A DNA stretch of 64,000 nucleotides from Arctopsyche grandis (lineage: Eukaryota; Arthropoda; Insecta; Trichoptera; Hydropsychidae). Shown in pieces: positions 18,001-61,803 of this stretch; the first letter of the stretch is position 1, and the number at the start of each line of letters is the position of its first letter. The position numbers were made by a program, and so were the translations under genes. Where the stretch lies: NCBI RefSeq assembly GCF_051622035.1, contig NC_135362.1, positions 29,757,001 to 29,821,000 of the forward strand. The letters are read 5' to 3'. The notes under the pieces were generated by a model. The model was not told where the DNA came from and made no database searches. It saw nothing but the letters and a program-made list of their open reading frames with translations.

Positions 18001-21000
18001 ATATGGGCTAGGGATACTGCGTTTTTTTCGCATGTTTAAAAGTATCTAAAAAAAAACACGTACCACTCAGTGTGTTTTCGCCCTTGTGTGTGTATTGTCC
18101 CGAGGCCAATATTGGCTTGACTTAGTGGAATGTCTTAACAATTGGCCTCGTGTAACTGCAACGTAAAGTCTATATTCCGGTCTATGGTCACAAGATGCAC
18201 TATAAAAGAATTTCAATTCTTAAAAAATAAAACTTTGTCATTATAAAAAGTATTAAATATTTATTGGAAATTTACATAATATACACATCATATTATACGT
18301 GAAACTTATCTTGTATTGAGTGAATAACTTTAATAGTCATTGTTGTAAAATCATATTTGGTAATGAATAACATTGAAAAAAATCACATAATGCTACATTT
18401 CTTTTTAACTTTTTCCGGTTCGATTAAAGCGGCCAGGATTGCTTCGTCGAAAACGTTTTTTAAACCTCGCTAAAATCGAATAAAAACTATATTTAATTAG
18501 AATTCATTTTAGAATGTTATGTATGAGTTCGGTAATTCACACTAAAATCTCGATCACGGAACATCTGGCACCCAAAAACTCCATCAATCGAAAGCGCGAC
18601 CACCCACGCGAAATATCGTACTAACGAGAACTCGAGTGCCAGATATTCGGTGATGGAGATTTAGTGAATTCATTTAACGTATGTACATATGTATGTTACT
18701 TAAAAAAAACTGACCTGCGTCAAAGCTGAACATTCAACATATTTGACAGCTTTCAAATCTTTAGCCAACTTCTCTCCTTGTTCGGGTTGAATAATTCTCT
18801 GTCTGCTCTTGGCCAATTTCTCTTTGGTGTCTACGTCGGTCCTCAAATCCGTCTGAGTGCCGACTATTATGAACGGAGTTTTGGAGCAATGGTGGACAAT
18901 CTCGGGCACCCACTTCGCCACAGATAACAAATTACAACGTTCAATATGACATTAAAAACTTACATAGAAATTAGGACGGAGTGCATTTGGACGAATGAAT
19001 GTTGTTTTTAAATTAAAAAAAATGCCACTGCCTGAAGAAAAAGATCTTTGATCGATGCGTTTTGCCAGTGATGACGTATGAACGTGAAACTTGGACATTG
19101 AACGCCAAGATGCTACACAAAATGATTTGTTTTCTCCTCCTGTGGCTCGCACAAATATGCTGGCCACGTCTCCAATATCTAGAGTGATATATCTGCTCAA
19201 TCGGGTTGCTGATGACATTGACCTCTTCAATGTAAACTGTCCTAAACGGGTTGAGTGGTTGTTGAGCAACGCCAGTGGTTGATTTTATCAATTATAAATG
19301 TCAATGATTTTTCCATCGAGATATAACAGGTTGTTATTATTATGATTAAGGTTATTATTATTACTCTATAATGTGACTTTGGCTAACATGTTAAAAATAA
19401 TATAAACAAAGTCCAATGCACTCAAAGAAATATGGAACGCTGTATGCTCTACATAACGAGGAAAGACATATGGAGTACATTTGGACGAATGAATGTTGTT
19501 TTTAAATCAAAAATGCCCCTCTGCCTGAAGAAAAAGATCTTTGATCAATGCGTTTTGACGTATGGAAGTGAAACTTGGACATTGAACGTCAAGATACTAC
19601 ACAAAGTTCAATGCACTCAAAGAAGTAAGAAGAACCGGCGTAACGAAGAAAGACAGGAAGCGGAACATGTGGGTGAGAAGTATGACGAGGATAGAGTAAA
19701 GAGATTGAAATGGCAACGGGCAGGCTACGTGGCTAGAAGATTGGACGAAAGGTGGACAAAAGAAGAGCTAGAATAGTACCCGAGAGAATGCAAAAGGGCA
19801 AAAGGAAGACCGCAGGGAAGATGGGTTGACGAAATGAGGAAAATGTGTGCGGTCTGATGGATGAGAGTTGCGCAAAACAGAGACGATTGGTTGTAGATAA
19901 TGATGTATATATACCTTAGTTTTAACATTTTCAAATGAAATCGGATAAACGACACTGAAGCAGATCAGAAACACGTCCGTGTGCGGATAGCTCAAAGGCC
20001 GCAATCTGTCGTAGTCTTCTTGTCCTGAAATGTGAATATATAATTTAATAGTATTGTCGAGCTTGGGTTATGTAGATCTGGTAATCGAATACGATCATAC
20101 CTGCTGTATCGAACAAGCCGAGAGTGTAGGGCTCTCCTCCGATCATCACCGTTACGGCATAGTTGTCGAACACGGTCGGGACGTACTCTGCCGGAAATTT
20201 ATTCGTGGTATAACTCATCAACAGCGTCGTTTTGCCGACTGCACCGTCTCCTACTACCACGCATTTAATAGTCTGCGTCGACATTTTTCAACGGTGTCGG
20301 CACTTTGAGGTTACGTTTCCTGAGTTGTTTGTATGTACTTATGTTCTGGAATTGATTTGAATTGACATGTTACATGCAAAACGGGATCTATATTGCAATT
20401 TTATATACTAAAATGTATTCAAGTTCGGTTTATGAATTCAAATAATACACATTTCATATGATGCTTTGGCATGATAAAATTTGCAATATGTATGGTAAGA
20501 AGTTCCGAACAATACTATAGTTGGAAGTTTGATCGTTTCTTTAATTTTATAAATATAATCGATGATGATGTGCTCTTACAGTAATTTGGCAAGTATTCAA
20601 CTGCATTACTAACCAGTGACAGATGGTTCTTGTTGTTAATGGTGTATTATTATTGTTACACAATGAAATTTGATGCTTGTGCAACATTGGTTTATAAGCG
20701 TGTCATTAATCTTATCGTATTGTTTTCCTGTATGACTAACATTACGCATTTTTATGTAAAATTGATTATGTTAAATGTCATTATAAGTAATACAGCATTT
20801 GATTATATTATAGTTCCTAGACCCTTGGATTACAAAAAGTCAAAAAATAAATAAACAATAATAAGAAATCTGTATCATTGCTGTGAACTTTTCGTGTCAT
20901 TGATGGTAATTGATAGCAATAATGTTTTTGGGCCCTATACCAAAGAGTCGTATTACTTTAATTGTTGAACTCGCATTTTTAACAATTCTAAGCATGATTC

Positions 21001-60997: not shown

Positions 60998-61803
60998 TCA
61001 CATAAGACTGCATAACTTTTTACTAGTTTTCCGTTTTATAAAAGTGGTCATGATTGCTTCGTCAAATACGTTCTTTAAACCTTCCTACAATCGAATAATA
61101 ATTGCATTTCATTATTTTTATTAAATACATACATCATTTAAAAATGCAAATTATTAAATACAGCCAACCCGTGTCAGAGCCGAACATTCAACATATTTAA
61201 CAGCTTTCAGTTCTTCAGCCAAATTTTTCCCTTCTTGGGGCTGAATAACTTTCTCTCTTATATTCCCTAATTCATTGATAATTTTGGGATCGTCCCTTTG
61301 ATCTATCTTAGTGCCGACTAATAAAAACGGAGTTTGCTTATTGAAACGGGCGATCTCTGGAATCCACTGCACCACAGAATAAGAAATTAAAATATTTGAA
61401 TTAAAATTATTGACAATTTCTATAATATATGTATGTATGGGAATGCTTACATACGATTTAACCCTTTCAAACGAATATGGATCAACGACACTGAAACAGG
61501 CTAGAAAAACATCTGTGTTTGAATAAACCAACGACCTTAACCTTTCGTAGTCTTCCTGTCCTGGAATATAAATTTTATTTTATTTTATTCAGTATAAATA
61601 GAATCAAATACGATCATACCTGCAGTATCGAATAAGCAGAGATCGTGCTGTTCTCGTCCAATATTCAACACTACTATATCGTTGATAAAGAGGTTCGGGT
61701 CGTATTCTGTCGGAAATTTATTAGTAGAATAGGTCATCAACAGTGTCGTTTTGCCGACTACGGTATCTCCAACCACCACGCATTTTTTTCTTTTATTCGC
61801 CAT
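60998..61803 (-). CDS. Cdc42-like GTPase copy 8, divergent switch and P-loop
   Basis: Exons 61803-61620, 61560-61451, 61366-61169, 61084-60998, 192 residues, no stop or frameshift, all splice sites present. P-loop is GDTVVGKT: the G12 equivalent is T and A13 is V. Switch I is EYDPNLFIND: T35 to N, D38 to I, Y40 to D. Q61 remains (DTAGQEDYERLRSL). TKID base motif; YVECSAL; tail KRKTSKKL + CSLM. By family knowledge, G12 substitutions cripple GTP hydrolysis, and T35/D38/Y40 changes abolish binding of CRIB effectors in Cdc42. The protein would be expected to have unusual nucleotide behaviour and either no or new effectors. An open frame with such changes suggests new function or very recent relaxation. 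Confidence 0.88.

What the first reader, a model, noticed from the sequence alone, without database searches (positions are those of the whole stretch)
18383..61803. Eight-member Cdc42-like GTPase family seeded by a gene nested antisense in Nf1
Seen: eight minus-strand four-exon copies with identical exon lengths (184/110/198/87 nt), seven without lesions; the one inside the Nf1 intron is most like canonical Cdc42. Known: Cdc42 is usually a single, highly conserved gene, and Nf1 encodes a Ras GAP. Inference: duplication of the Nf1 3' end carried the nested GTPase with it and created a lineage-specific family of divergent Cdc42 paralogues. An expanded, fast-changing Cdc42-like cluster beside Nf1 is the most novel system in this window.
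Basis: partly seen in the sequence, partly recalled or inferred. Interest (0 to 1): 0.93.

Follow-up and report, generated by a model that had tools for sequence, protein, structure and literature searches.

The report
Diverging Cdc42 gene cluster beside Nf1
In a caddisfly, Cdc42, normally one of the least changing proteins in animals, has been copied into a row of about a dozen relatives next to the Nf1 gene, several of them fast-changing and some without residues a normal switch needs, which makes it a natural test of how far this switch can be altered.

Summary
Eight minus-strand, four-exon Cdc42-like genes lie at 18383-61803; seven are intact and C2 is broken. C1 is antisense in the Nf1 intron before the last two coding exons. 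The window is from the caddisfly Arctopsyche grandis; its canonical Cdc42 lies on another chromosome-size contig with the same three intron positions. The array runs past the window to 12 copies seen (2 dead), and one more lies elsewhere on the same contig. The 11 intact copies form one clade inside Cdc42: intron-bearing DNA duplicates, not retrocopies. Of the 10 intact array copies, 9 have Met-ending CAAX boxes (canonical: CALL), which predicts farnesylation. C3-C9 show dN/dS about 1.2 (not significantly above 1) against 0.21 elsewhere, with frames kept, mosaic exons and much change in switch I; C3 and C8 lack T35, C8 also G12, C11 Q61. Positive selection is suggested, not proven (recombination-aware null: 1 of 66 simulations reached the observed value; per-exon tests sum to p 0.10). 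Expression and biochemistry are untested. Tandem birth-and-death of a signalling gene is a known kind; this is an unusual variant.

The parts
18383..20284 (-). C1: intact Cdc42-like gene (exons 20284-20101, 20024-19915, 18912-18715, 18469-18383), CAAX CSIM, nested antisense in Nf1
   Evidence: identical to P0001
30244..31050 (-). C2: pseudogene copy (frame shift in exon 3, lost acceptors at exons 3 and 4); T35 replaced by Q
35784..36595 (-). C3: intact; switch I changed (Y32C, T35R, V36G, Y40C); CAAX CSVM
   Evidence: identical to P0125
40493..41318 (-). C4: intact; CAAX CSVM
   Evidence: identical to P0123
44768..45578 (-). C5: intact; CAAX CSVM
   Evidence: identical to P0122
48635..49459 (-). 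C6: intact; 3 nt different from C4 in the coding sequence
52870..53683 (-). C7: intact; exon 4 of C4/C6 type, rest mostly of C5 type
   Evidence: identical to P0121
60998..61803 (-). C8: open frame; G12T, A13V, T35N, V36L, D38I, Y40D; CAAX CSLM; no identical protein among the 120 rows listed
9005..16745 (+). Nf1 (neurofibromin) C-terminal coding exons upstream of the nested gene (outer limits approximate)
16746..23960 (+). Nf1 intron holding C1
23961..24138 (+). Nf1 penultimate coding exon
   Evidence: its first part is in the alignment
24214..24285 (+). Nf1 last coding exon with stop (model by splice signals only; not covered by the alignment)
38618..40277 (.). repeat-unit spacer with Nf1-derived pieces (39085-39269, 39755-39847) and Nf1 3' flank (39987-40277)
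43084..44555 (.). repeat-unit spacer with Nf1-derived pieces (43383-43567, 44059-44151) and Nf1 3' flank (44291-44555)
46807..48419 (.). repeat-unit spacer with Nf1-derived pieces (47227-47411, 47897-47989) and Nf1 3' flank (48129-48419)
51182..52657 (.). repeat-unit spacer with Nf1-derived pieces (51481-51665, 52161-52253) and Nf1 3' flank (52393-52657)
54912..55366 (.). truncated unit spacer with Nf1-derived pieces (55174-55266, 55271-55366)
38686..55150 (.). recent tandem duplication of a two-gene block: 38686-47045 against 46812-55150, 98.15% identical

Best explanation
A lineage-specific tandem array of Cdc42-derived small GTPases under birth-and-death evolution with exchange between copies. 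An intron-bearing Cdc42 duplicate settled beside and inside the 3' end of Nf1; older members C1, C11 and C12 (and C13 elsewhere on the contig; C13 was not in the rate test) evolved under constraint on average, while the unit 'Nf1 3' end + downstream GTPase' was tandemly amplified in the C2-C7 stretch and exons were reshuffled between copies (from sequence). The proteins most likely work as Cdc42-fold switches with a farnesyl-type Met CAAX whose effector and regulator surface has been re-tuned: copies with unaltered G motifs (C1, C4-C7, C9, C12; C9 has F37C in the effector loop) as switches with altered partners, and copies without T35 or with G12 or Q61 replaced (C3, C8, C11) as stuck forms that hold GEFs, GAPs or GDI without normal effector signalling (inferred). 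dN/dS of 1.2 with kept frames reads as relaxed constraint plus some diversifying selection on switch I (suggested, not shown).
For: Origin: same three intron positions as canonical Cdc42 (exons 178/110/198/90); the 11 intact copies form a clade at 99/99 inside Cdc42; C8, C11 and C13 hit CDC42 before TC10 and Rac in the PDB. Unit structure. Mosaics: C3 exon 1 is 97% like C2, its intron 1 and exon 4 100% like C5, its exon 3 99% like C6; the four exon trees disagree. Frames kept: at least 159 substitutions among C3-C8 without a stop, P 0.0019 if unconstrained; C9 is open too; no coding indel among C3-C9 while their introns show several. A 5' leader of roughly 80-110 bp is kept, by eye. dN/dS: 0.21 background against 1.19 in C3-C9, two-ratio LRT p 1e-16. 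Diversification: M2a over M1a 2dlnL 23.9 on C3-C9, sites with posterior above 0.8 including 35 and 36; 1 of 66 simulations under a recombinant null reaches it and 0 of 66 reach M0 omega 1.16; exon 1 alone 2d 8.6; exon 1 replacement divergence 0.146 against introns 0.090, bootstrap P 0.003; switch I 13 of 17 positions variable, P 0.011 uncorrected for ten regions. CAAX; Met in the CAAX box makes RND proteins farnesylated (PMC6696182, passages).
Against: Omega in C3-C9 is not significantly above 1 (2d 0.95; 2d 0.61); with per-exon trees the summed M2a test is p 0.10, and exons 1-2 together give p 0.06; no pairwise NG86 test is significant; over the whole gene pN does not exceed pS or introns significantly. 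Exon 2 has omega 0.46, so not all parts are fast. Two copies (C2, C10) are dead, so plain decay explains part. No expression evidence. Farnesylation and altered partners are predictions. The AF2 model of C3 was too weak to judge switch I (pLDDT below 50 over residues 16-40; a Danaus Cdc42 control on the same 20 rows was weak there too). In the tree 8 of 17 inner branches are open and C13 is a long branch whose row carried two stray end characters.
Confidence: 0.6

Rival explanations
1. Decay in progress: redundant recent duplicates drift without function, and the open frames are those not yet hit.
For: Omega of C3-C9 not different from 1; C2 and C10 are dead; loss of T35, G12 and Q61 in some copies.
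Against: No stop or coding indel in seven copies (C3-C9), with P 0.0019 for stops alone computed on C3-C8; most core G motifs, splice sites and the 5' leader kept; exon 1 replacement change exceeds intron change.
Confidence: 0.28
2. The copy number in the middle of the array is inflated by assembly: the 38686-47045 and 46812-55150 blocks are two haplotypes laid side by side.
For: 98.15% identity over 8.4 kb and 56 substitutions in 6680 intergenic sites, 0.84%, a level that heterozygosity could give.
Against: C5 and C7 differ by 9 of 87 nt in exon 4 through a C4/C6-type tract; deposited A. grandis proteins hold C4, C5 and C7 separately. It would touch only C4/C5 against C6/C7; the other copies are clearly distinct.
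Confidence: 0.1
3. Retrocopies or unrelated Rho GTPases that look like Cdc42.
For: None found.
Against: The three canonical intron positions are kept; best matches are Cdc42, not Rac or TC10 (C1, C8, C11, C13 tested); 99/99 clade within Cdc42.
Confidence: 0.01

Closest known systems
Canonical Cdc42 (A. grandis copy at G000:C2, 16.303 Mb)
   Same: G motifs in most copies, Rho insert region, intron positions
   Different: CAAX CALL against mostly Met-ending boxes; in the listed rows C1 is about 80-83% identical to most full-length Cdc42 proteins, C7 about 64-73%, C8 about 56-62%; dN/dS of C3-C9 five to six times that of the other branches
Duplicated Cdc42 of the oyster Crassostrea gigas (PMC4669188, passages)
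   Same: Extra Cdc42 copy in one invertebrate lineage
   Different: Two copies, Ka/Ks 0 between them; no array and no switch I change mentioned in the passages seen
Rnd proteins (atypical, farnesylated Rho GTPases)
   Same: Met in the CAAX box, hence farnesylation (PMC6696182, passages); C8 and C11 also carry changes at G12 or Q61
   Different: Array is Cdc42-derived (no Rnd sequence was in the tree) and 8 of 10 intact copies keep both G12 and Q61
Genes nested in an NF1 intron in mammals (OMG, EVI2A, EVI2B; recalled, no call)
   Same: Antisense genes inside an NF1 intron
   Different: Unrelated genes and, as recalled, a different intron

Membership tests
Cdc42 subfamily of Rho GTPases | Groups with Cdc42 apart from Rac and Rho in a tree | tested here: met
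   100/99 for the Cdc42 side, 99/99 for the 11 intact copies within it; TC10 was not in the tree, but C8, C11 and C13 score Cdc42 above TC10
Cdc42 subfamily of Rho GTPases | Rho insert region and G1, G3, G4, G5 motifs | tested here: met
   By alignment in the 10 intact array copies, with exceptions: C8 has G1 altered (G12T, A13V) and C11 has G3 altered (Q61N)
Cdc42 subfamily of Rho GTPases | Switch I Thr35 (Mg2+/effector threonine) | tested here: inconclusive
   Kept in 8 of 10 intact array copies (C1, C4-C7, C9, C11, C12); lost in C3 (R) and C8 (N), also in pseudogene C2 (Q)
Cdc42 subfamily of Rho GTPases | Geranylgeranyl-type CAAX ending in Leu | tested here: not met
   C1, C3-C9 and C11 end in Met; C12 (CSIL) and C13 (CEIL) end in Leu; canonical CALL
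Cdc42 subfamily of Rho GTPases | Binds and hydrolyses GTP, binds CRIB effectors | not testable with these tools
   needs purified protein
Rnd family (considered) | GTP-locked through changes at catalytic residues (positions recalled) | tested here: not met
   G12 and Q61 both kept in 8 of 10 intact array copies; C8 G12T and C11 Q61N are exceptions
Rnd family (considered) | Met-ending, farnesyl-type CAAX | tested here: met
   9 of 10 intact array copies; a shared feature, not proof of kinship
Retrocopy (considered) | Lacks the introns of the parent | tested here: not met
   three shared intron positions

The most novel reading that the evidence does not exclude
The array is a diversifying set of decoy or sensor Cdc42 proteins shaped by conflict with bacterial factors that modify Rho GTPases. 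The residues replaced in some copies (Y32, T35) are those that AMPylating effectors modify (PMC8097203, passages), T35 and V36 are among the 12 sites with posterior above 0.8 for positive selection, and exchange shuffles exons between copies as in other conflict families.
Probability: 0.08. Interest if true: 0.85.

Novelty: new variant of a known kind. Interest (0 to 1): 0.52.

Why it matters
Cdc42 is among the most conserved signalling proteins in eukaryotes. An array of natural variants that keep open frames while altering switch I, catalytic residues and the lipid signal would be a ready-made mutational series for asking which parts of the switch can be given up and what the results do. It also gives an intermediate case of how Met-CAAX, atypical Rho GTPases can arise. 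For annotation it is a warning: the eight deposited A. grandis clusters seen here carry the plain names 'cdc42 homolog' or 'cell division control protein 42 homolog', although the canonical Cdc42 lies on another contig.

Tried and rejected
Retrocopy origin: rejected by shared introns. C1 as the canonical Cdc42: rejected, the canonical gene is on contig C2. One event duplicating Nf1 3' end and nested gene together: rejected on divergence. Array Nf1 exons as working alternative 3' exons of Nf1: unlikely, since the exon is interrupted by about 490 bp and reading on from its first 54 nt meets a stop in the copy at 39.2 kb, although those 54 nt are unusually well kept. Whole-gene M2a test at face value (p 6e-6): not accepted, because a null with per-exon trees reaches 23.9 in 1 of 66 simulations. 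Earlier and other runs: C3-C8 2d 9.65; exons 1-2 2d 5.64, exons 3-4 2d 16.55, five-copy subset without C4 and C8 2d 31.08. NG86 tests for dN above dS: none significant. AF2 of C3 against a Danaus Cdc42 control on the same 20 rows (mean pLDDT 68.8 and 75.5): uninformative for switch I. Literature on a Cdc42 array or an Nf1-nested Cdc42: no title or abstract start among the listed rows described one (4 of 4, 20 of 50, 20 of 29, 2 of 2, 10 of 2,290); two papers naming A. grandis in title or abstract and one further paper were listed and not read. Copy number of Nf1 elsewhere in the genome: not obtained, the server was busy.

Full report
What is there. Eight four-exon genes on the minus strand, modelled with exon lengths 184/110/198/87 in all eight, encode 192-aa Cdc42-like proteins in seven cases; C2 is broken. 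Five window proteins are identical to deposited proteins of the caddisfly Arctopsyche grandis, and the genome search placed the window at 29,757,001-29,821,000 of contig C8 (33.6 Mb) in a 475.7 Mb assembly. The deposited contig is 3,460 bases longer than the held one, so the two may be different versions.

Surroundings. On the plus strand lies the 3' part of Nf1. Spliced models match neurofibromin residues 2074-2334 (E 9.1e-110) and 2576-2732 (E 1.3e-45). The intron between 16745 and 23961 holds C1 antisense. Two short coding exons follow (23961-24138 and 24214-24285; the last by splice signals only).

The family is larger than eight. Beyond the window come C9 (P0124), an inverted dead copy C10 (read from the sequence, no model built), C11 (P0155) and C12 (P0141), and a solo copy C13 lies about 27 Mb away on the same contig. 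Canonical Cdc42 (191 aa, CALL) is on another contig with introns at the same three positions. Thus 12 array copies were seen, 10 of them with open frames, plus C13. The genome search scores only its best candidates, so more distant copies could exist.

History. The maximum-likelihood tree puts C1, C3-C9 and C11-C13 in one clade (99/99) inside Cdc42 (100/99 against Rac and Rho), with C1, C13 and the rest in an unresolved split and C11+C12 next to the C3-C9 group (8 of 17 inner branches open, C13 a long branch). The four intervals between C3 and C7 hold, in the same order, homologues of 22166-22503 (whole or part), 22856-22993, the Nf1 penultimate exon and 25503-25796, then the next GTPase; the C2-C3 and C7-C8 intervals hold parts of this. 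Most of these pieces are 78-95% identical to their Nf1-side partners (one piece at 55 kb is 72%), but C1 is only 65-74% identical to array genes in matching stretches, 51-72% in intron 1 and flanks, with NG86 dS 0.79-0.88 to C3-C8. So the amplified unit was the Nf1 3' end with the GTPase downstream of it, after C1 had diverged. The latest event doubled an 8.4 kb block (98.15%); a haplotype artefact is not excluded for that block.

Exchange between copies. C3 is a mosaic (exon 1 97% like C2, intron 1 and exon 4 100% like C5, exon 3 99% like C6) and C7 has a C4/C6-type exon 4. Trees of the four exons disagree.

Constraint and change. Outside C3-C9 omega is 0.21 (canonical Cdc42, C1, C11 and C12 in the test); within it is 1.19 (two-ratio LRT p 1e-16; not different from 1). 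Frames are nevertheless kept: at least 159 substitutions among C3-C8 and no stop (P 0.0019), C9 open too, and no coding indel among C3-C9 although their introns carry several. A site model on C3-C9 prefers a class with omega 4.7 (2dlnL 23.9), with posterior above 0.8 at family positions 5, 32, 35, 37, 38, 55, 73, 118, 132, 180, 182 and 184; subtracting 2 gives Cdc42 numbering, so 37 and 38 are T35 and V36. Because exchange inflates such tests I simulated 66 data sets without positive selection on per-exon trees: 1 of 66 reached 23.9 and 0 of 66 reached omega 1.16. With separate exon trees exon 1 gives 2d 8.6, exon 2 none (omega 0.46), exon 3 2.96, exon 4 1.69, and the sum is p 0.10. Replacement divergence in exon 1 (0.146) exceeds intron divergence (0.090; bootstrap P 0.003), while over the whole gene pN, pS and pI are 0.111, 0.107 and 0.090 without significant order. 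Switch I has 13 of 17 variable positions (P 0.011, uncorrected for ten regions). My reading: relaxed constraint with probable diversifying selection on switch I.

Predicted biochemistry (inference). Nine of the 10 intact array copies end in a Met CAAX box (C12 ends CSIL), the feature that makes RND proteins farnesylated, unlike the mainly geranylgeranylated RHOA, RAC1 and CDC42 groups (PMC6696182, passages seen). [quoted passage not shown] C8 also has G12T, C11 has Q61N, and C9 has F37C. Copies with complete G motifs could still cycle; C3, C8 and C11 probably cannot signal in the normal way and might act by holding regulators. No expression data were available.

Membership. By tree, motifs and best hits these are Cdc42-subfamily proteins. 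They differ from canonical Cdc42 in lipid signal and, in some copies, in defining switch residues. They are not filed as Rnd proteins, though they share the Met CAAX.

Limits. No other caddisfly genome could be searched, so timing is open. Nf1 copy number elsewhere was not obtained (server busy). The deposited genes counted here are the A. grandis rows (eight clusters, nine member sequences).

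Noticed in passing
39085-39269, 43383-43567, 47227-47411, 51481-51665: Copies of the first 54 nt of the Nf1 penultimate exon in the array are 100% identical (two units) or differ at 2 sites (two units), while the adjoining intron piece is clearly more diverged; then about 490 bp of other sequence replaces 50 nt of exon. Exchange with Nf1 or a hidden constraint could explain it.
   Followed up: partly
L018-L020 (G000:C9, 3.884-3.904 Mb): A second tandem cluster of Rho-family genes, three RhoL-like copies with different intron positions (the name RhoL is recalled, not tested).
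   Followed up: partly
L023, L024 (short contigs C103, C64): Rho-like frames without introns in the matched part on small contigs, unlike the caddisfly genes; possibly from another organism in the sample.
   Followed up: no
4820-5953 (+), 32530-33909 (+), 57683-60111 (-): Mobile elements: MULE transposase domain, reverse transcriptase, and a LINE-like endonuclease/reverse transcriptase between C7 and C8.
   Followed up: no
6929-8221: Satellite of 198-bp units, 6.5 copies, 98% matches.
   Followed up: no
roughly 80-110 bp upstream of each ATG (for example 41319-41430): 5' leader with a kept TTCATAATAATTCCAGAATATAATCAAC-like block in C2-C12 and weaker in C1 and C13; upstream of it several copies diverge. 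It may be a proximal promoter or a 3' splice site of a leader intron (judged by eye).
   Followed up: partly
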